A stretch of 61,588 bases of DNA from Chloroflexota bacterium (GTDB lineage Bacteria; Chloroflexota; Dehalococcoidia; Lucifugimonadales; UBA3495): NCBI GenBank assembly GCA_028875655.1, contig JAPPCX010000062.1, positions 1-61,588 on the forward strand, in the 5' to 3' direction. Positions 20,750 to 61,401 of the stretch are shown here, piece after piece. A program made the position numbers and the translations under genes. Under the pieces are notes generated by a model. It was given only the letters and a program-made list of their open reading frames with translations. It was not told the DNA's origin and did no database searches. Positions within the stretch are counted from its first letter, which is position 1; the number at the start of each line of letters is the position of its first letter.

Positions 20750-21268
20750 ATGGCGTTGCAGGAATTTATCAAGGAATCTTTTGATAACAACTGGGAGTGG
20801 CTGGTGCGCTACGTGGACGGGCTGACCCAGGGCGAGATTGAGTTCACCCCCAACGAGCAGTGCCATTCCATCGGTTTTATCGTGTGGCATTATGGGCGGG
20901 CGCTGGATATGTGGGTGCAGTCGCTGGCCAAGCAGGACACCCAGCTCTACGAGCGGGAGTGGGCCGAGCGTCTGGGCTTCGCGCCGGAGCCGATGAACGT
21001 GGGGTTCGGCTACACGGTCGAGGACCTGATCAACTGGAAATGCCCCGACAAAGCCGTCTTGATGGAGTACGCCGACGCTGCCCGCAACAACCTGCTGGAG
21101 TTCCTCGCCCAGCATGACGACGAATCCCTGGTCAACACCCAGATGACCAATCGGCGCGGCGAAAGCATGGCGGTGGCCGATATGTTCCGCCTGCTCATCT
21201 GGGAGGTCAACCAGCACGGTGGCCAGGCCGGCTATCTGCGGGGGATGCAGCGGGGGTTGGGGCAGTAG
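20750..21268 (+). CDS. DinB family protein
   Basis: A 172-residue four-helix-bundle protein of the DinB/YfiT superfamily, with metal-ligand histidines in SIGFIVWHYGRALDMW (first site) and NQHGGQAGYLRG (last helix). Such proteins are thiol-dependent S-transferases or metal-dependent hydrolases; the individual reaction is unknown. It follows the crotonase fusion by 12 bases and is likely co-transcribed. Confidence 0.85.
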   Translation: MALQEFIKESFDNNWEWLVRYVDGLTQGEIEFTPNEQCHSIGFIVWHYGRALDMWVQSLAKQDTQLYEREWAERLGFAPEPMNVGFGYTVEDLINWKCPDKAVLMEYADAARNNLLEFLAQHDDESLVNTQMTNRRGESMAVADMFRLLIWEVNQHGGQAGYLRGMQRGLGQ

Positions 21269-39453: not shown

Positions 39454-41874
39454 TCAGCGCAACTGCACCACCGTCACCCCCGCCGCGCTCCCGCCCTCTC
39501 CCGGCTCGGTAGTTGCCACCAGCGGGTGGCCGGTCAGGTACTCGCGGATGGCGCGGCGCAACGCTCCCGTGCCCTTGCCGTGGACGATCTTGAGCGACGT
39601 CATGCCCTCCAGCGCGGCATCGTCCAGCAGGGAGTCAATGATGTTGAGCGCCTCATCCACCCGATACCCGTGCAGGTTCACCTCCGGGCTCAGCGTGCGC
39701 TTGGCCTCCGGGCGCCGATACACCACGCCGGCCTGCTCGGCGGCGGGATGCACCCGGTCAGCCGCCCGGTCCAGCTGGTACACGGGCAGCCGGGCGCGCA
39801 TACTGCCGATCACGACCTCGATTTCCTGCTGTTCGTCGGGCGGCGTGACCACCTCCACCGGGCGAGACACGCCCCGGATGTACACCCGGTCTCCCACGTG
39901 CAGGTCGTGATACCAGGGCGGACGCTCCACGGGGATCGGCGCCCACTCCGGCGACACCACTTCCCGTTGTGCCTCGACCAACCGCTCGCGTTCCGCTTGC
40001 AAATCGACGTCCGAGCGTCGGGCGTCCCGGCCGGCAGCAGCCTGCCGTTCCTGCTCTCGTCGCAATGAACGTTCCGCCTGCCGTATGCGTCCGGCGACTT
40101 CTGCGATTTCCTCGGCAAGCTCGCGGCGGGCGTCTTCCACCAGTTGGGCCTTGGTATCTTCCACCGCTTCCAAACGCTCGGCAATCTCCTGCTCCTGCCG
40201 GCGGGCGTCGGCCAGCGCCTGCTCGGCCTGCTGGCGCAGTTCCGACACCGTGAGCCGTTCCTCCTGCAATTCCTGCAGCAATCGGTCGGTCTGCACGTGG
40301 GACGGCTCCAGGTGGGTCTGCGCGCCGGCTATCACGGTTTCAGGCAAGCCCAGCCGGTATGCTATGGTCAGGGCATAGCTGCGGCCCGGCACTCCGTGAG
40401 TCAGGCGGTACGTCGGCTCCAGCGTACGCGGGTTCAGGTCAACGCTGGCGTTGACCATGCCGGGCTCTTCCTGGGCCAGGCGCGCCACGTTGCGGTGGTG
40501 GGTCGTCGCCACCACCGTCGCGCCGCAATCCCGCAGGTGGGACAGCAAGGCGATGGCCAGGGCCGAACCCTCCTCCGGGTCGGTGGCCGAACCCAGCTCG
40601 TCGATCAGCACCAGCGACCGCGGTGTGACTACGTCCAGGATGCGCTGGATGTTGCGGATGTGGCTGCTGAACGTGGACAACGACTCAAAGATACTCTGCT
40701 GGTCGCCGATGTCGGCGTAGATGCCGTCAAAGAGGGGCAGGTCGGCCTCGTTGGCCGGCACCTGGAGGCCGGCGTGGGCCATCATCGCCAGCAGGCCGAC
40801 GGTCTTTAGCGCGACCGTCTTGCCGCCGGCGTTGGGGCCGGTGATGAGCAGAACCGGATGGTCGGCGTCAATGCTGATAGTGGTGGGCACCACGTCGCCG
40901 GTGAGCAGCGGATGGCGCGCGCCGCCCAGATGCAGCCGCCTCGGTTCATCCGCGTCAAGCAGGTTGGGAGGAACGGCCCGCAGGCTGGCGGCGTAGCGCC
41001 CCTTGGCCACCGCCAGGTCCAGGCGTCCCAGCAAGTGGATCATCAGGTTGATGTCCTCGGCGTAGCGGCCCACCAGGGACGACAGTTGCCGCAGCACCCG
41101 CTCTTCCTCGCGCTGCTCGGCCAGGCGAGTCTCGCGCCAGCGGTTGCCAAGGTCGATCGCCGGCATCGGTTCGATGAACACCGTGGCGCCGCTGTCCGAT
41201 ACGTCATGCACGATGCCGGGAGCTTTACCCTTGAAGTCGGTTTTGACCAGTAACACCATGCGCCCGTTGCGCTCGGTTACTATGTCTTCCTGCGCGATGC
41301 CGGAACGCTGGTAGCGGCGCAGCGTGCGCTGCATTACGTCGTTGAGCGCAGAGTACGACGAGCGGGATTCCCGGCGCAGGCGGGACAGCTCGGGCGTTGC
41401 GTTGTCCATGACTTCACCGGCGGGGCCGATGGCATGATTCACCGCGCTTTCCAGATCGGGCAGGTCGGGCAGGTTCTGGGTTATGGCGGCCAGGATGGGC
41501 AGATCTTCCCGATGGGACAGCGCGTTGCGATTCCAGCGGGCAGCGGCGGCCAATGCCCCGACGTTGCGCAGTTCCTCGCCGCTCAGGACGCCGCCCAGCA
41601 GGGCACGATGGACGGCAGGGCGCAGGTCGTCGGCGGGTCCCAGTTCCAGGGATGCGGCGGTGTCCAGCAGGCGACGGGCCTCGGCGGTTTCCTGCTGACG
41701 CACGGCTACATCGCGCGCGTCGGCGGAGGGTGTAAGCTCGGCGGCAGACTCCGCGCCGACGGCGGTGCGAGTCGCGGCGGCCAGTTGCCGGCGTATTTCG
41801 TCAAATTCCAGCAGCCCCAACGCGAGTTGGAAGCTGCCGTCGGTAGGCGTGGGTTGCTCGTCCGCCGAAACCAT
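39454..41874 (-). CDS. mutS2: MutS2 ATPase/Smr-domain protein
   Basis: An 806-residue MutS2. The helical clamp domain comes first; the ABC ATPase has Walker A GPNAGGKT, the Q-loop/signature region and Walker B VLIDELGSATDPEEG. A coiled-coil arm of about 100 residues (ELRQQAEQALADARRQEQEI in part) and a C-terminal Smr domain (EVNLHGYRVDEAL, VHGKGTGALR) follow. MutS2 does not do mismatch repair; in Bacillus subtilis it splits collided ribosomes, and the Smr domain may cut nucleic acid. It is the last gene of a minus-strand run with a VLRF1-type hydrolase and a YafQ/DinJ pair. Confidence 0.96.
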   Translation of the reverse strand: MVSADEQPTPTDGSFQLALGLLEFDEIRRQLAAATRTAVGAESAAELTPSADARDVAVRQQETAEARRLLDTAASLELGPADDLRPAVHRALLGGVLSGEELRNVGALAAAARWNRNALSHREDLPILAAITQNLPDLPDLESAVNHAIGPAGEVMDNATPELSRLRRESRSSYSALNDVMQRTLRRYQRSGIAQEDIVTERNGRMVLLVKTDFKGKAPGIVHDVSDSGATVFIEPMPAIDLGNRWRETRLAEQREEERVLRQLSSLVGRYAEDINLMIHLLGRLDLAVAKGRYAASLRAVPPNLLDADEPRRLHLGGARHPLLTGDVVPTTISIDADHPVLLITGPNAGGKTVALKTVGLLAMMAHAGLQVPANEADLPLFDGIYADIGDQQSIFESLSTFSSHIRNIQRILDVVTPRSLVLIDELGSATDPEEGSALAIALLSHLRDCGATVVATTHHRNVARLAQEEPGMVNASVDLNPRTLEPTYRLTHGVPGRSYALTIAYRLGLPETVIAGAQTHLEPSHVQTDRLLQELQEERLTVSELRQQAEQALADARRQEQEIAERLEAVEDTKAQLVEDARRELAEEIAEVAGRIRQAERSLRREQERQAAAGRDARRSDVDLQAERERLVEAQREVVSPEWAPIPVERPPWYHDLHVGDRVYIRGVSRPVEVVTPPDEQQEIEVVIGSMRARLPVYQLDRAADRVHPAAEQAGVVYRRPEAKRTLSPEVNLHGYRVDEALNIIDSLLDDAALEGMTSLKIVHGKGTGALRRAIREYLTGHPLVATTEPGEGGSAAGVTVVQLR

Positions 41875-42502: not shown

Positions 42503-43300
42503 CTAACCATTCCACCGCAACGGGTAGGCTCGGCACTGGTACAGCATCGCGCCCACCTGGTCCAGCGCTGCCCGGTTCGGCTCCCGCACGTCCAGCCGGC
42601 GTTGTAGCGTGATGGACGCCAGGCGGCCCAGCATGTCGCACTCCTTGACAAACCCGTTGACGGTGGCGGCCTCACCACCCAGCGCAACGTAGTCCAGCCG
42701 GTCGAGCCACGGCCGCCACTGTCGTTCCAGCACGCCGGCTGCTTCCACGTACAGCCGGTGTATCTGGTTTTCCCGAACCCGTCGGAATCGCTGCTGAGAC
42801 GTGCCCCCGGCGTGGTGCCGGCTCTTCACGTAGCGCGTGTCCGTCTTGGATACCGCCAGCTGCTGCCCCTCGTACACCGCGATGGCGTAACGGCCCAGCC
42901 GCACCAGCGCGACGCCCACGGTGAAACGGGTCGCCAGCAGCGCGCGCAGCGGCCGGTCGTTGATGCCCTCGCCCAAGCTCGTGGCATCCATCGGAAAGGG
43001 CGGCAATATGGCCATACCGGCGTTCCCGATCCGGAAAGCCGCCAGGCCAGTCGGCGATCGCAGCGCCTGGTTGCTGGCGCGTTCCAGCGCGTCAATCCAC
43101 GAGGGGCCGTCCCGGTGCCTTGCCAACGCACCGATGGTAACGTCATCGCGCGCGCTGGAGGACGGCACGTGCAGGGTTGACGCGGCGACGCCCGACTCCG
43201 CCAATTCGCGGAGTCGGTCCAACTCGCGTTGCACCCGGCCTACGGACAACGATTGCCCGGGCCGCACGCTGGAACTGAAAGTGTCGTTGAGCGAAGCCAT
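42503..43300 (-). CDS. VLRF1/Vms1-like (acVLRF1-type) peptidyl-tRNA hydrolase
   Basis: A 265-residue protein. The block RYVKSRHHAGGTSQQRFRRVRENQIH (residues 157-181, quoted in part: GGTSQQRF at 165-172) matches the GGxxQ loop of VLRF1 domains, where a Gln directs cleavage of the peptidyl-tRNA bond, as in eukaryotic Vms1/ANKZF1 and the actinobacterial acVLRF1 group. The rest (FTVGVALVRLGRYAIAVYEGQQLAVSKTDT, in part) is the eRF1-like fold. It lacks the ankyrin and VCP-binding parts of eukaryotic members. It should release nascent chains from stalled 50S-tRNA complexes. First gene of the run leading to mutS2. Confidence 0.8.
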   Translation of the reverse strand: MASLNDTFSSSVRPGQSLSVGRVQRELDRLRELAESGVAASTLHVPSSSARDDVTIGALARHRDGPSWIDALERASNQALRSPTGLAAFRIGNAGMAILPPFPMDATSLGEGINDRPLRALLATRFTVGVALVRLGRYAIAVYEGQQLAVSKTDTRYVKSRHHAGGTSQQRFRRVRENQIHRLYVEAAGVLERQWRPWLDRLDYVALGGEAATVNGFVKECDMLGRLASITLQRRLDVREPNRAALDQVGAMLYQCRAYPLRWNG

Positions 43301-43397: not shown

Positions 43398-44543
43398 ATG
43401 GTTTCCCACGGCGTGCCCGATGACGTGCAGAACGAAGTCCTCTCCCCAACGGAACGGCAGCAACGCGCCCTCCGGCGGCTGGACGATGGCCACGCCGCGC
43501 TGCTGTCAGCCTTGGACGGCGTGGGCGAGGCCGAGGCGTTCCTGGGTTCCCGGTGGTCGGTATGGGAGGTGATGCAGCACCTGCTCACGGAGAACTTTGT
43601 GCAGGCGCTGGAGGAAATCGCCTCGGGCGATCGGGAGATGCTGCCGCCGTTCGATGCGCGGGAGGACCGCATCGCCGCCGACGTGGCCCGGCTGGAGGCC
43701 AACTACCAGCGTTTCCGTGCGCTGATAGTCGGCCTGTCGCCGGCACAGCTGGACTTGCCGGCCACGCCCTACAATCCCGAAAACAACTATCCCGCCCTGT
43801 CGCTGCTGGACTTGATTGAACGCACCTCGGGACATGAGGGCAATCACGCCCGCCAGGTAGTCGAAACCCGCAGGTTCGTGTCAGCCTTTCGCTCGGCGGA
43901 GCGGGCGGTCACCGTAGCCGGACTTGGGACGGGAGACCTTGCATCCGTCCCCATGCAGACGCGCGAAATGCTGGCCAACGCCGATTACGTCATCGGATCG
44001 CCGGACGCCCTATCGGTGGCCCGACGCTGGATACGTTCTGTGGAACTACCCCTGCGCGCGGAAAACCGCGCCGAGCTGGTCAATCGCACCGTACGGGACA
44101 TCCGCGCCGGCCTCTGGTCAATGGTCGCTACCCTGGGTGACCCGGCCGAGTCAATGCCCTCGCTGCTGACAGCTCTCGACGATGCCGTGGGAAAAGTGTC
44201 GGTCATATCCGCCCCCGGCTACTACCGGCTCGTGCTGGAGCAATCCGCACTTTCGCCTCTCGACGCCGTCTGCAGCTCGATCGAGCGCATCGAGGATGTA
44301 CAGCAACTAGCCGCGTCCGGCCGGGCCGTCGTCGTACTGGGAGCGGATGATGCCGGAACCTGGCGCGACGCGGCGGTCAGTTTGCAGCAGGCCGGCATCC
44401 CCGCCGATACGCCGGCCGATCTGCTAACCAATATGTCCACCAAGTGCACCACCGCCGCCACGTCTCTGGCCGAATTGATCGCCGCGCCGCTGGGAGATAC
44501 CGACGCGGCCGTAGATTCGGCGCTGGTCCTCCGGCATCACTAA
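43398..44543 (+). CDS. DinB domain fused to a tetrapyrrole-methylase-like domain
   Basis: A 381-residue protein from ATG 43398. Residues 20-165 are a DinB/YfiT-type bundle with His61, His146 and His150 at the expected metal positions (WEVMQHLLTENF, SGHEGNHARQV). From 171, VTVAGLGTGDLASVPMQTREMLANADYV (in part) resembles the N-terminal AdoMet-binding strand of tetrapyrrole (precorrin-type) methylases, and GRAVVVLGADDAGTWRDAA a later strand. The usual GDP motif is degenerate. The combination recalls MazG-methylase fusions such as YabN, but with DinB in place of MazG. Function unknown. Confidence 0.65.
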   Translation: MVSHGVPDDVQNEVLSPTERQQRALRRLDDGHAALLSALDGVGEAEAFLGSRWSVWEVMQHLLTENFVQALEEIASGDREMLPPFDAREDRIAADVARLEANYQRFRALIVGLSPAQLDLPATPYNPENNYPALSLLDLIERTSGHEGNHARQVVETRRFVSAFRSAERAVTVAGLGTGDLASVPMQTREMLANADYVIGSPDALSVARRWIRSVELPLRAENRAELVNRTVRDIRAGLWSMVATLGDPAESMPSLLTALDDAVGKVSVISAPGYYRLVLEQSALSPLDAVCSSIERIEDVQQLAASGRAVVVLGADDAGTWRDAAVSLQQAGIPADTPADLLTNMSTKCTTAATSLAELIAAPLGDTDAAVDSALVLRHH

Positions 44544-44564: not shown

Positions 44565-44590
44565 GTCATTCCCGCTTTCGCGGGAATCCA
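44565..44590. repeat. Short palindromic repeat (GTCATTCCCGC-TTTC-GCGGGAAT)
   Basis: CGTCATTCCCGC and GCGGGAATCC arms around TTTC, the outer palindrome of the dispersed family with the inner hairpin missing, between two plus-strand genes. Confidence 0.8.
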
Positions 44591-44655: not shown

Positions 44656-45552
44656 ATGGCAGAGCGGATTGGATTTGTCGGGCTGGGCATCATGGGCAAG
44701 CCCATGGCCCGCAACCTGATGGCGGCCGGCTATGAGCTCACGGTCTATGACATTGTCGGCGAGCCGGTGGAAGAGCTGGCTACCGAGGGCGCGACCGCGG
44801 CGTCCTCGCCGGCGGGCGCGGCGGCGGGCAACGTCCGCACCATCACCATGCTGCCCGACTCGGCCGACTCCGAGCGGGCCATCCTGGGCCCGGAGGGCGT
44901 GCTGGAAGGCGCGGAACCCGGCTCGGTCATCATCGACATGAGCAGCATCGCCCCGTCCATGTCCCAGAAGATCGGCGCGGCGTGCGACGATAAGGGCGTG
45001 AAGTTCCTCGACGCGCCGGTCAGCGGCGGCGAGCCGGGAGCCATCGCCGGCACCCTGGCCGTCATGGTCGGTGGTGACGAGGCCGTGTTCGACGACTGCA
45101 AGGCCGTCCTGGACGTCGTTGGCGGCAACGTGGTGCTCACCGGCGACGTGGGAGCCGGCAACATCACCAAGCTTGCGAATCAGATCATCGTCGCCGCCAA
45201 CATCGAGGCGCTCAGCGAGGCGATGGTGCTGGCCCAGAAGGCCGGCGTCGATCCCGAACGTGTCTTCAACGCCATCCGCGGCGGTCTGGCCGGCAGCGCG
45301 GTGATGGAAGCCAAGGCGCCCATGATGCTGGACCGCAACTTCCGCGCCGGCTTCCGCATCCGCCTGCACCAGAAGGACCTGCGCAACGTGCTGCAAACCG
45401 CCGGCGAGCTGAACGTGCCCCTGCCCGTAACCGCCCTGGTGCAGCAGATGCTGGGCTCGCTCATCAACGACGGCGAGCAGGACGCCGACCACTCGGCCAT
45501 CCTGCACTTCATCGAAAAACTGGCCGGCGTGGAGGTAAACCGGGGCAGTTGA
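44656..45552 (+). CDS. 2-hydroxy-3-oxopropionate reductase-like dehydrogenase
   Basis: A 298-residue beta-hydroxyacid dehydrogenase: Rossmann motif GFVGLGIMGKPMARNL (6-21), substrate loop LDAPVSGGEPGAIAGTL, catalytic Lys in NITKLANQIIVAAN. The sequence is closest in pattern to tartronate semialdehyde reductases (GarR/GlxR). It would convert tartronate semialdehyde to glycerate in glyoxylate metabolism. GGAGGA precedes ATG 44656. The next gene starts two bases later. Confidence 0.9.
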   Translation: MAERIGFVGLGIMGKPMARNLMAAGYELTVYDIVGEPVEELATEGATAASSPAGAAAGNVRTITMLPDSADSERAILGPEGVLEGAEPGSVIIDMSSIAPSMSQKIGAACDDKGVKFLDAPVSGGEPGAIAGTLAVMVGGDEAVFDDCKAVLDVVGGNVVLTGDVGAGNITKLANQIIVAANIEALSEAMVLAQKAGVDPERVFNAIRGGLAGSAVMEAKAPMMLDRNFRAGFRIRLHQKDLRNVLQTAGELNVPLPVTALVQQMLGSLINDGEQDADHSAILHFIEKLAGVEVNRGS

Positions 45553-46130: not shown

Positions 46131-47066
46131 ATGGCAGGCCCCGGCAAGTCCTACCGCAAGGGCATTTCCATCCCCAAACTGCTGAAGATGTTCCCCGACG
46201 ACGCAACCGCCGAGGCGTGGTTCGTCGCACAGCGGTGGCCCCAAGGCGTCCGGTGCGCCTACTGCGAATCCGAGAGCGTCCAGGAAGGGACTACCCATCC
46301 CACCATGCCATACCGTTGCCGGAAGTGCCGCAAATTCTTCTCCGTCAAGACCAACTCCGTGATGCAGTCTTCCAAGTTGGGATACCAAGCTTGGGCCTTG
46401 GCGCTCTACTTCGTCACCACCGGCCTGAAGGGAACGTCCAGTATGAAGCTGCACCGGGACCTGGACGTTACTCAGAAGACGGCCTGGTTCCTGGCTCACC
46501 GGATAAGGGACACCTACATGAACGAGGGGCAGTCGGTGAACTTCTTTGGCCCGGTGGAAGTGGACGAGACTTACATCGGCGGACTGGAGAAGAACAAGCA
46601 CGAGTCGAAGAAGCTAAAGGCCGGACGGGGAGCCGTCGGCAAGACTCCCGTCGTCGGGCTGAAAGACCGCACCACCAACCAAGTGAAGACCGCGGTAGTC
46701 CCGGACACCACGGCCAAGACCCTACAGGGATTTGTCCACAGCAACACCACGGCCGGCGCGACGGTCTACACTGACGAGGCGGCGGCTTACCAGGGCCTGA
46801 ACCGGCCCCATGAGGCGGTCAAGCACAGCGCCAACGAGTACGTGCGGGGGATGGCCCACACCAACGGGCTGGAATCTCACTGGGCCCTGTTCAAGCGCGG
46901 GATCGACGGGATTTACCACCACGTCAGCGTGAAGCACCTGCCCCGGTACACCGGCGAGTTCGAGGGCCGACACAACGCCAGGCCGATGGACACCGGAGCA
47001 CAAATGACCGCGATGGTTCGGAGCATGAGCGGGAAGCGGTTGCGCTACATCGACTTGGTAGCTTAG
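46131..47066 (+). CDS. IS1595 family transposase
   Basis: A 311-residue transposase. The N-terminal zinc ribbon is formed by C42/C45 (CAYC) and C63/C66 (CRKC); a helix-turn-helix-like region follows. The DDE catalytic acids are visible as D145 (VEVDETYIGG), D215 (YTDEAAAY) and E248 in HTNGLESHWALFKRG, the pattern of the IS1595/ISXO2-like group. Length is normal and no frameshift is seen, so it should be active and mobilise DNA between the two 26-bp repeats. Confidence 0.96.
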   Translation: MAGPGKSYRKGISIPKLLKMFPDDATAEAWFVAQRWPQGVRCAYCESESVQEGTTHPTMPYRCRKCRKFFSVKTNSVMQSSKLGYQAWALALYFVTTGLKGTSSMKLHRDLDVTQKTAWFLAHRIRDTYMNEGQSVNFFGPVEVDETYIGGLEKNKHESKKLKAGRGAVGKTPVVGLKDRTTNQVKTAVVPDTTAKTLQGFVHSNTTAGATVYTDEAAAYQGLNRPHEAVKHSANEYVRGMAHTNGLESHWALFKRGIDGIYHHVSVKHLPRYTGEFEGRHNARPMDTGAQMTAMVRSMSGKRLRYIDLVA

Positions 47067-47079
47067 GAGGAGGGCTTTG

Positions 47080-47370
47080 ATGGTCAAGGAGACCCGGATC
47101 GTCTTTGACTTGGGCGACATTCGCCACGTCCGAATCATCTGCACCAAATGCCAGGGTGAGATTGCCAGGTCGCTATCCCAAAGCCGGAATATGCTGCCCC
47201 AGCGGTGTCCCAACTGCCTGGAAGAATGGTGGGATGAAGCCAGCAAGCCGAGGGTGATTGACGCGACGGTTGAGATGCTGAAGGCCGTTGACCGGCTGGT
47301 GCAATCGCTCAGCATGGACGAACAGCCGGTGGCGGTCCGCTTTGAGATTGACGGAGAGGATGAGAAGTAG
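47080..47370 (+). CDS. Small zinc-ribbon protein (transposon cargo)
   Basis: A 96-residue protein with CTKC and CPNC pairs (about residues 22-48) forming a zinc ribbon, followed by a helix (ATVEMLKAVDRLVQSLS) and an acidic end. GGAGGAGG overlaps the end of the transposase gene and precedes ATG 47080. Function unknown; it could be a DNA-binding accessory protein of the nuclease/methylase set. Confidence 0.7.
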   Translation: MVKETRIVFDLGDIRHVRIICTKCQGEIARSLSQSRNMLPQRCPNCLEEWWDEASKPRVIDATVEMLKAVDRLVQSLSMDEQPVAVRFEIDGEDEK

Positions 47371-47374
47371 GGAC

Positions 47375-48004
47375 ATGGCTGAGCAAAATTGCAAGCAGGA
47401 AGGGTGTGGGCGAACTGCCCGAGGTCCACATGGGCTATGTGGGACACACAATGCTCAATACCGGCGCAAAGGTAAGACATGGCCGATAGGTGAACGTGGG
47501 GCGCCGGATAGGCATTGCGTCGTTTGCCAGCGGTGCTTTACACCCAAGTATTCACGGACGCGATATTGCTCTGACGAATGCAGACGAGCGGGCAGTCGTG
47601 CCCTGAGGAAGGGCATCCTTCCCGACAGAATCAGTGCGGAAGTTGCCCGTGCTGGCGGACCAGAAAGTTACCGAAGTCGTGTCCATGAACATCCCATAGG
47701 AACGGTCCTGCATTTCAGCAATCACCCCTATCCCCGTGTCAAGGTGGGTCCGGGAAAGTCTTGGAGAGATGAACACCGCCACGTCATGGAGCAGCACCTT
47801 GGCCGGCCACTGGAAGCCCACGAAAACGTCCACCACAAGAACGGAGACCGGACCGACAATCGCCTGGAGAACCTGGAGCTATGGAGCACGTCCCAGCCCC
47901 CAGGCCAGCGGGTGGTAGACAAACTGGAATGGGCGGAGTGGTTCACAGCCCAGTACAAGGGACAGCAGTTGGAATTGGAGGGGACAGCAAATGGCAGGCC
48001 CTAA
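47375..48004 (+). CDS. HNH endonuclease with N-terminal Cys clusters (transposon cargo)
   Basis: A 209-residue protein. The N-terminal half holds Cys/His groups (C6, C11, C22, H25; CVVCQRC at 48-54 and CSDEC at 65-69) that look like two zinc knuckles. The C-terminal half contains an HNH_3-type core: H134 in EHRHVMEQHLGRPL, HHKNGD at 153-158 and NRLENLELW. Such domains cut or nick DNA and occur in homing-type and phage endonucleases. ATG 47375 starts four bases after the previous stop; its end overlaps the methyltransferase start by 14 bases. Confidence 0.85.
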   Translation: MAEQNCKQEGCGRTARGPHGLCGTHNAQYRRKGKTWPIGERGAPDRHCVVCQRCFTPKYSRTRYCSDECRRAGSRALRKGILPDRISAEVARAGGPESYRSRVHEHPIGTVLHFSNHPYPRVKVGPGKSWRDEHRHVMEQHLGRPLEAHENVHHKNGDRTDNRLENLELWSTSQPPGQRVVDKLEWAEWFTAQYKGQQLELEGTANGRP

Positions 48005-49463
48005 CTTCGCCAACCGGACGCTGTGGACCGGAGACAACCTGGACATCCTCCGGGGCATCAACAGCGAGTGCGTTGACCTGATCTATCTGGACCCGCCGTT
48101 CAACTCCAACCAGGATTATTCCGCGCCCGTGGGCAGCGCGGCGGCAGGCGCTGCCTTCAAGGACACGTGGACGCTAAGCGACGTGGACGATGCTTGGCAC
48201 GGTATGATAGCCGAGTCTCACCCTGCGCTCTACGGGATAATTGACGCGGCGCGTCCGGCCCACGGCAAGGGCATGAAGTCCTACCTGATTATGATGGCTG
48301 TCCGCCTGCTGGAACTTCACAGGGTGTTGAAGGACACGGGGAGCGTCTATCTCCATTGCGACGATACGGCAAGCCACTATCTCAAGCTCTTGATGGACTC
48401 GGTATTTGGTGCTGGGCAGTTCAGGAATCACCTGATCTGGCGACGGGCAACGGCGCACAATGACCCCCGGCGGTTTGGCCGGAACGTTGACCACATCCTG
48501 TACTACGGGAAAGGCCAGACCGCCACGTGGAACGGGGCTGAGATCGCAACACCGAAGACCGATGACGAAATCAGGAAAGCCTACCCTCAGACAGACGAAA
48601 GGGGGCCGGTCAGGTCGGAGAACCTGACCGGCCCCCTTCATGGCACTTCTCCGGGATTGCCAAGTACCACACCCTGGAAAGGCTACGACGTGTACGCCAG
48701 GGGCCGTTGCTGGTCTCCGCCCAAGACCGGAGCCTATGCCGTGTATATCGAGCGCCATTTCATCCCCGGCTACCGGAGCATCGAGGGCGTCCAGGAGCGG
48801 CTTGACGCTTTGGACGACGCCGGACTCATTCACCATCCCACTACCGGGGTGTGGCCGGGGCTGAAGCGGTACGCCGCCGCCGACCGGGGCAATCCGCCTC
48901 AGAGCCTGATACTGGACCCGACGGGTTTCACGAACTTCAACAAGGGCAGCGAGTGGGTAGGCTATCCCACGCAAAAGCCTCTGGCCTTGCTTGAGCGCAT
49001 CATCGCGGCCAGCTCCAACCCCGGGGATGTAGTGCTGGATCCGTTTTGCGGTTGCGCCACCGCCCTGGTAGCCGCCGAGAAGCTGGAAAGGCAGTGGGTG
49101 GGGATTGACCTTTCACCGAAGGCCAAGGACCTGGTGGAACTGCGGCTGCGAAATAACCTGGGCCTGTTCGGGTTGCAGACCACCTATCGTGAGGACGTGC
49201 CACGTCGTACCGACTTGGGCGAGGCACCACCCTACCGGACTCAGAAGCATACCCTGTTCGGCAAACAAGAAGGGTTGTGCGCCGGTTGTCGGGTGATGTT
49301 CCCGTTCCGCAACTTCACCATAGACCACATCATCCCGCAATCCAGGGGCGGAACCGACCACCTGGACAACCTGCAACTGCTATGCGGGGCCTGTAACTCC
49401 ATGAAGGGAGACCGGCCCCAGGAATACCTGCTTGCCCGCCTGCGGGAAGCCGGAATACTCTGA
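47991..49463 (+). CDS. DNA methyltransferase fused to a C-terminal HNH nuclease domain (transposon cargo)
   Basis: A 490-residue protein. Catalytic motif IV DPPF (34-37) comes before AdoMet motif I DPFCGCAT (350-357), the beta-class order of N4-cytosine/N6-adenine methylases; motif X-like GYPTQKPLALLERII is at 324-338. After the methylase ends (about 395), a short linker leads to an HNH domain: CAGC (430-433), DHIIPQSRGG (445-454), DNLQLLC...C (459-468). Modifier and cutter in one chain suggests a single-protein restriction enzyme or a modification-sensing nuclease. It is also possible that the HNH part is a relic of the neighbouring nuclease family. A strong hairpin lies within the gene at 48601-48636. 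Confidence 0.9.
   Translation: MAGPNFANRTLWTGDNLDILRGINSECVDLIYLDPPFNSNQDYSAPVGSAAAGAAFKDTWTLSDVDDAWHGMIAESHPALYGIIDAARPAHGKGMKSYLIMMAVRLLELHRVLKDTGSVYLHCDDTASHYLKLLMDSVFGAGQFRNHLIWRRATAHNDPRRFGRNVDHILYYGKGQTATWNGAEIATPKTDDEIRKAYPQTDERGPVRSENLTGPLHGTSPGLPSTTPWKGYDVYARGRCWSPPKTGAYAVYIERHFIPGYRSIEGVQERLDALDDAGLIHHPTTGVWPGLKRYAAADRGNPPQSLILDPTGFTNFNKGSEWVGYPTQKPLALLERIIAASSNPGDVVLDPFCGCATALVAAEKLERQWVGIDLSPKAKDLVELRLRNNLGLFGLQTTYREDVPRRTDLGEAPPYRTQKHTLFGKQEGLCAGCRVMFPFRNFTIDHIIPQSRGGTDHLDNLQLLCGACNSMKGDRPQEYLLARLREAGIL
48601..48636. repeat. Perfect 15-bp hairpin inside the methyltransferase coding sequence
   Basis: GGGGGCCGGTCAGGT (48601-48615), loop CGGAGA, ACCTGACCGGCCCCC (48622-48636), then TT. 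It falls in codons 204-216 in the variable region between motifs IV and I. A stem this long and GC-rich is not required by the encoded residues. Confidence 0.9.
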
Positions 49464-60887: not shown

Positions 60888-61401
60888 TCTGACGCTGCCC
60901 TTCCTGCAACTCGTCAATCTGCTCCCGCGTGCGCCCATAGATCTGCGGCACGTCCCAGCCGTTGAGGCCGGAGTAGGTGTCGATCTGCGAGCGGTGATGC
61001 ACCTCGTGCTCAATCAGCATCATCAGGATGCGCCACCCGCTCAGCGTGCCGTCGGTGTCGATCATCTTGATGCGCCGGTTCAGCCACTCCGCCGGCGTGC
61101 CGTCCAGCCGCCGGTGAAACTCCGCGTGGGATTCGTTCAGCGCCGGTATCCACTCCGACTGCCGATCGGTGCTGGGAACCTCCCAGTCGTACAGCCAGCC
61201 CTCGTTGCGATAGGCCCGCGAGAAGTACATCCGCGACTCGCAGATGTGATGCACGATCTGGTTGATGCTCCACGACTTTTCGCCCTCACCCACCGGCGGC
61301 GTCCAGCCCTGCGCCTCGGTTGGCAGCGCCTGGATGTCCCGCAGCGTGCGGCGGTGTATGGAATCGAAGAAGCGCAGGAACTCCTGCGGATCAGTCAGCA
61401 T
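60877..61401 (-). CDS. DinB family protein
   Basis: A 174-residue DinB/YfiT bundle with metal-ligand histidines in SINQIVHHICESRMYF and LIEHEVHHRSQIDTY, the classical arrangement. WSI...H and EHEVHHRSQ match the DinB_2 subgroup. It is the third DinB-type protein in the window (others at 20750 and within 43398). Likely a thiol-linked transferase or hydrolase; reaction unknown. Confidence 0.88.
   Translation of the reverse strand: MLTDPQEFLRFFDSIHRRTLRDIQALPTEAQGWTPPVGEGEKSWSINQIVHHICESRMYFSRAYRNEGWLYDWEVPSTDRQSEWIPALNESHAEFHRRLDGTPAEWLNRRIKMIDTDGTLSGWRILMMLIEHEVHHRSQIDTYSGLNGWDVPQIYGRTREQIDELQEGQRQIKG

What the first reader, a model, noticed from the sequence alone, without database searches (positions are those of the whole stretch)
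43398..44543. Unusual DinB + tetrapyrrole-methylase-like fusion
A DinB metal-binding bundle (three positioned His) is followed by a region with GLGTGDL and a later VVVLG strand, reminiscent of tetrapyrrole methylases. It parallels YabN-like MazG-methylase fusions but uses DinB. It might join a thiol-transfer or hydrolase step to an AdoMet- or nucleotide-sensing domain.
Basis: inference. Interest (0 to 1): 0.5.

Follow-up and report, generated by a model that had tools for sequence, protein, structure and literature searches.

The report
DinB enzyme fused to CbiE remnant
This bacterial gene joins a DinB-type metal enzyme to a worn-down copy of a vitamin B12-pathway methyltransferase (CbiE), and in related bacteria half of that copy is already gone, so the attached part is probably a reused or decaying remnant and not a working methyltransferase.

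Summary
Window 43398-44543 (+) is one 381-aa ORF: an N-terminal DinB_2 domain with the three positioned His (H61, H146, H150), then a full two-lobed tetrapyrrole-methylase (TP, class III) domain. Both Pfam matches pass their cut-offs, and structure searches return TP methylases. The nearest methylase family is CbiE, of which the genome has a separate intact copy.

The functional reading is weakened. CbiE-conserved positions are 12 of 26 kept in the N-lobe but only 2 of 21 in the C-lobe. The gene is confined to one family of Dehalococcoidia/SAR202-type Chloroflexota: 14 of 14 genomes of the window's genus carry the full form; in other genera 21 genomes carry DinB plus only the N-terminal lobe and 2 carry DinB alone. 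dN/dS rises from 0.105 (DinB) to 0.158 (N-lobe) to 0.333 (C-lobe).

Best reading: a DinB (STL-superfamily) metal enzyme carrying a CbiE-derived, probably non-catalytic accessory domain whose N-lobe has its own conserved RxxRxxRxGxW motif, while the C-lobe is dispensable. It resembles YabN only by analogy. New variant of a known kind; modest interest.

The parts
43398..44543 (+). DinB-TP methylase fusion ORF, 381 aa
   Evidence: full-length orthologs in 13 loci, 64-86% identity
43387..43389 (+). AGG, possible Shine-Dalgarno, 8 nt before the ATG
   Evidence: sequence comparison of 14 upstream regions; inference
43482..43859 (+). DinB_2 domain (residues 29-154)
   Evidence: Pfam PF12867, 35.0 bits, E 2.3e-8
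43578..43580 (+). H61, presumed metal ligand
   Evidence: His in 36 of 36 family proteins
43833..43835 (+). H146, presumed metal ligand
   Evidence: His in 36 of 36
43845..43847 (+). H150, presumed metal ligand (HxxxH with H146)
   Evidence: His in 36 of 36
43896..44210 (+). TP-methylase N-lobe (residues 167-271), CbiE-derived
   Evidence: Pfam PF00590; CbiE profile 44.6 bits; homologous half domain in other genera versus CbiE: 99% probability, E 5.5e-18
43920..43937 (+). GLGTGD loop (residues 175-180), counterpart of CbiE GVGPGD
   Evidence: alignment with 12 CbiE
44085..44117 (+). RxxRxxRxGxW motif (residues 230-240), specific to the fusion clade
   Evidence: R233 and W240 in 34 of 34 fused proteins, R230 in 33, R236 in 32; CbiE differs
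44133..44144 (+). LGDP (residues 246-249), counterpart of CbiE WGDL/P
   Evidence: D248 in 13 of 14 of the genus and 5 of 20 half proteins
44211..44540 (+). TP-methylase C-lobe (residues 272-381), eroded; absent in half-domain orthologs
   Evidence: VIA-align to 3ffy C-lobe Z 10.1, 2.9 A over 103 residues; 2 of 21 CbiE-conserved positions kept
44328..44342 (+). VVVLG strand (residues 311-315)
42503..43300 (-). divergent neighbour: acVLRF1-type GGQ release-factor-like gene (context, not part of the protein)
   Evidence: Pfam PF18859, 101.1 bits; present in 13 of 13 genus loci and 10 of 15 other family loci
39454..41874 (-). mutS2 (context)
   Evidence: Pfam MutS_V and Smr; 11 of 13 genus loci, 12 of 15 other family loci
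44656..45552 (+). 3-hydroxyisobutyrate-dehydrogenase-like gene (context, genus only)
   Evidence: Pfam; 13 of 13 genus loci, 0 of 15 other family loci

Best explanation
A DinB (S-transferase-like, STL) metal enzyme was fused once, in one family of Dehalococcoidia-type Chloroflexota, to a spare copy of the B12-pathway methyltransferase CbiE. Shown: the fusion, the His triad, the CbiE kinship of the N-lobe, the erosion of CbiE residues, and the absence of the whole C-lobe in sister genera. Inferred: the DinB half does the chemistry (a divalent metal on H61/H146/H150 activates a thiol or water for transfer or hydrolysis). The CbiE-derived half no longer methylates, because the class III active site lies between the two lobes and one lobe is eroded here and missing elsewhere. 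Its N-lobe has been kept as an accessory (dimerisation, lid or docking) module marked by the clade-specific RxxRxxRxGxW stretch, and the C-lobe is on its way out.
For: Both Pfam matches above cut-off. TP fold by structure. CbiE as the nearest methylase: the TP proteins that I identified among the weaker profile hits were CbiE; profile-profile 99.2%, E 1.3e-19; fused N-lobes form one clade (100/99) next to most CbiE rows. Separate intact CbiE and five other TP methylases in the genome. CbiE-conserved positions kept: N-lobe 12 of 26, C-lobe 2 of 21. Half-domain orthologs in 21 genomes, DinB-only in 2, at the same locus where mutS2 or acVLRF1 could be found. Identity DinB 85%, N-lobe 75%, C-lobe 52%; median dN/dS 0.105, 0.158, 0.333. 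His triad 36 of 36. Metal-dependent thiol transfer in eight B. subtilis STL proteins whose only fully conserved residues are three His (PMC5815605 passages).
Against: In the genus the C-lobe is still under purifying selection (dN/dS about 0.33) and open in 14 of 14 genomes, so it is not a plain relic; GxGD and GDP loops of the N-lobe are mostly kept there. The direction (full to half) is not proven: the tree places the full forms among half forms, and a single half clade is only not rejected (AU p 0.088). No thiol co-substrate was identified. The whole-protein model is of low confidence (pLDDT 68, pTM 0.40), so no DinB/TP interface can be read from it.
Confidence: 0.6

Rival explanations
1. 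In the window's genus the protein is a true bifunctional enzyme: the TP domain still binds AdoMet and methylates a substrate (not precorrin-7) that DinB also handles.
For: Complete two-lobed fold; the Asp of GxGxGD kept in 11 of 14 and that of GDP in 13 of 14 genus sequences; C-lobe under purifying selection.
Against: The CbiE PGxSS, LHxR and RPxDLMP stretches are all replaced; 2 of 21 C-lobe positions kept; C-lobe absent in 21 orthologs.
Confidence: 0.12
2. The TP domain is a sensor: it binds AdoMet, a nucleotide or a tetrapyrrole without catalysis and regulates DinB.
For: The N-lobe glycine loop and GDP loop are mostly retained in the genus; the domain is selected.
Against: The ligand cleft needs both lobes (recalled), and the glycine loop is itself lost in the g240 half proteins.
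Confidence: 0.15
3. The TP part is a neutral relic being lost step by step; only DinB matters.
For: Rising dN/dS towards the C-terminus; half and zero versions at the same locus.
Against: dN/dS well below 1 in both lobes; 13 N-lobe positions held in at least 32 of 34 proteins, several of them not CbiE residues (R233 and W240 in 34 of 34).
Confidence: 0.1

Closest known systems
DinB/YfiT (STL) superfamily, e.g. Bacillus subtilis BstA-H
   Same: DinB_2 domain with three positioned His (H...HxxxH)
   Different: has a C-terminal TP-methylase-derived domain; no bshC in the family (0 of 49), so not shown to use bacillithiol
CbiE, cobalt-precorrin-7 C5-methyltransferase
   Same: N-lobe sequence and collinear two-lobe fold; nearest family by profile
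   Different: fused to DinB; far below the CbiE cut-off (14.9 versus 92.9 bits); C-lobe hallmarks replaced; a real CbiE exists elsewhere in the genome
YabN-type TP methylase-MazG fusion (recalled)
   Same: a TP-methylase fold joined to a helical metal-binding enzyme domain
   Different: DinB in place of MazG, order reversed (order recalled), TP part eroded; no MazG match

Membership tests
DinB / STL superfamily | profile match above the curated cut-off | tested here: met
   35.0 against 24.8 bits
DinB / STL superfamily | three conserved His | tested here: met
   H61, H146, H150 in 36 of 36
DinB / STL superfamily | four-helix bundle fold | tested here: inconclusive
   helices predicted but low confidence in this half; weak profile match to solved 2rd9 (E 8.4e-5) and DinB-like 3dka (E 0.0093)
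DinB / STL superfamily | metal-dependent thiol transfer | not testable with these tools
   needs an assay
TP methylase (PF00590, class III) | profile match above the curated cut-off | tested here: met
   29.6 against 27.8 bits; narrow margin
TP methylase (PF00590, class III) | two-lobed class III fold | tested here: met
   domain model pLDDT 78.8; VIA-align Z about 10-11 to CbiE 2bb3, RsmI and diphthine synthase (rmsd 8-10 A over both lobes; C-lobe alone 2.9 A)
TP methylase (PF00590, class III) | AdoMet binding and methyl transfer | not testable with these tools
   needs binding and activity assays
CbiE equivalog | match above the NCBIfam cut-off (TIGR02467) | tested here: not met
   14.9 against 92.9 bits
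CbiE equivalog | C-lobe residues conserved in CbiE of the class | tested here: not met
   2 of 21 kept
YabN | MazG domain | tested here: not met
   no MazG match up to E 10 in Pfam

The most novel reading that the evidence does not exclude
Half of a methyltransferase fold has been recruited as a new stand-alone accessory domain: a CbiE N-lobe without its partner lobe, with a new RxxRxxRxGxW motif, serves a DinB metal enzyme across one bacterial family, and the window's genus preserves the intermediate with both lobes.
Probability: 0.4. Interest if true: 0.5.

Novelty: new variant of a known kind. Interest (0 to 1): 0.36.

Why it matters
I found no description of this architecture: no paper in the searched library holds both 'DinB' and 'tetrapyrrole methylase' or both 'SAR202' and 'DinB'. 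The orthologous locus shows three states (DinB alone, DinB plus one lobe, DinB plus two lobes) in one family, a compact case of how a catalytic domain is co-opted and trimmed. It also warns against annotating these proteins as methyltransferases.

Tried and rejected
CbiE replacement (the fusion supplying the B12 step): rejected, the genome has its own CbiE, CbiF, CbiL, CbiH, CobA and RsmI. MazG/YabN member: rejected, no MazG. Frameshifted or split gene in half-domain genomes: the other two downstream frames of 16 loci were read and show no recognisable C-lobe. Bacillithiol partner: bshC in 0 of 49 family genomes, controls rang in 3 of 14. Mycothiol MshC: own genome only below cut-off (323.7 of 485.1 bits), and the matching ORFs look like CysRS. 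Homologs outside the family: class 393 genomes, order 250, phylum 400 (draws overlap in part): the fusion only in the window's genome in the class and phylum draws, and only in family f1 in the order draw. Nearest solved sequence to the TP profile: only 3nut, E 0.67. Literature searches for YabN+MazG+tetrapyrrole methylase returned 0 papers, CbiE/pseudo-methyltransferase terms 0; searches listed nothing that I judged relevant from titles and abstract starts. NmbA (PMC12719100, passages) is a class I methyltransferase, not related. PMC6514570 (passages) describes acVLRF1 and does not contain the word DinB.

Rows left out: G430 (half form, N-terminus disrupted in its frame) was left out of the alignments and tree of half proteins (20 of 21 used). 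One search tested 10 of 11 TP proteins at hand (L081 left out; it scores as CbiE, where it was also one of the seeds). Alignment A3 holds 6 of 14 genus, 5 of 21 half and 2 of 2 DinB-only proteins; A5 11 of 12 CbiE; A6 6 of 21 half; one search scanned 5 of 21 half proteins and 2 of 2 DinB-only; one search used 13 of 21 half loci and 2 of 2 DinB-only, another the same plus 4 of 13 genus loci; one search used 5 of 14 genus and 9 of 20 half.

Full report
Observation. The ORF at 43398-44543 (+) encodes 381 aa. Thirteen close relatives found in public genomes are all full length at 64-86% identity; record titles name Chloroflexi, Dehalococcoidia and a SAR202 cluster bacterium. The ATG and MVSH start are invariant and most upstream regions carry an AGG-type stretch. 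DinB_2 (29-154) and TP_methylase (171-349) both pass Pfam's cut-offs.

The C-terminal region is a TP-methylase fold. An AlphaFold model of residues 165-381 on 14 sequences has pLDDT 78.8, pTM 0.60; 151 PDB chains match at E <= 0.001 and all 50 listed are TP-type methyltransferases. VIA-align gives Z about 10-11 over both lobes but with rmsd 8-10 A, meaning the lobes are not placed well relative to each other; the C-lobe alone fits 3ffy at 2.9 A over 103 residues. The full-length model is poor (pLDDT 68.3, pTM 0.40).

Which methylase. The genome holds seven TP_methylase matches: CobA, CbiF, CbiL, CbiH, RsmI, CbiE and the fusion. The weak hits of the fusion profile that I identified in other genomes are CbiE. 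Profile comparison with 11 CbiE of the class: 99.2%, E 1.3e-19 for the whole domain; 99.0%, E 5.5e-18 for the half domain; 11.8%, E 0.0025 for the C-lobe alone, against 0.3% for a DinB control. In an N-lobe tree the fused lobes are one clade (100/99) grouped with most CbiE rows at 91/85, with a short alignment and long outgroup branches.

Erosion. Of positions conserved in at least 11 of 12 CbiE, the genus keeps 12 of 26 in the N-lobe and 2 of 21 in the C-lobe (kept meaning the CbiE residue in at least 13 of 14 rows). The CbiE stretches PGxSS, LHxR and RPxDLMP are replaced. Mean identity within the genus falls from 85 to 75 to 52%, and median dN/dS rises from 0.105 to 0.158 to 0.333 over 91 pairs, with synonymous sites fairly saturated.

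Distribution. In 50 genomes of the family, the DinB part occurs in 37: 14 of 14 of the window's genus with both lobes, 21 in other genera with DinB plus N-lobe only, 2 (g238) with DinB alone. The half forms end at nearly the same site, after the strand that closes the N-lobe. Thirteen family genomes gave no such DinB match, several of them incomplete. Outside the family, no fusion was seen in draws of 250 (order), 393 (class) and 400 (phylum) genomes. The locus is shared: mutS2 is upstream in 11 of 13 genus loci and 12 of 15 other loci, including both DinB-only loci; acVLRF1 in 13 of 13 and 10 of 15. Three half loci (G426, G411, G412) showed neither neighbour in the stretch held. The DinB-only genes thus sit at the orthologous place.

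Direction. On a tree of 36 proteins drawn with a midpoint root, which falls on the branch to the DinB-only pair, the full forms sit among half forms, but one clade of all half forms is not rejected (AU p 0.088). The common end point of the half forms and the homology of the C-lobe to TP methylases favour full-length fusion first and one later truncation; repeated truncation is possible.

Mechanism. DinB: the three His are in 36 of 36 proteins; three such His are the only residues fully conserved in the eight metal-dependent B. subtilis transferases (PMC5815605, passages). The thiol partner is unknown. The CbiE-derived part is most likely non-catalytic: a one-lobe form cannot build the inter-lobe active site (established knowledge of class III enzymes, recalled). 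Its N-lobe is nevertheless selected and has clade-specific residues, R233 and W240 in 34 of 34, which argues for an accessory role. This last step is inference.

Context. The gene is divergent from an acVLRF1-type GGQ gene, near mutS2. A functional link with ribosome rescue is possible but rests on position alone.

Noticed in passing
42503-43300 (-) and 39454-41874 (-): An acVLRF1-type GGQ release-factor-like gene next to mutS2, a pair conserved through much of the family that may reflect ribosome rescue.
   Followed up: partly
46131-49463 (+): IS1595-type transposase, an HNH gene and a DNA N6/N4-methylase fused to a C-terminal HNH nuclease; this stretch had no match in the 13 relatives' loci between conserved flanks, so it looks like an inserted island.
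   Followed up: partly
20780-21229 (+) and 60982-61356 (-): Two further DinB_2 genes in the window; the genome has 11 DinB_2 matches in all.
   Followed up: no
L083 406-2724 (own genome, contig C34): A CysRS catalytic domain fused to a family 2 glycosyltransferase, beside a separate ordinary CysRS-like gene on another contig.
   Followed up: partly
44568-44587: Short inverted repeat (ATTCCCGC-TTTC-GCGGGAAT) between the fusion and the downstream dehydrogenase gene, REP-like.
   Followed up: no
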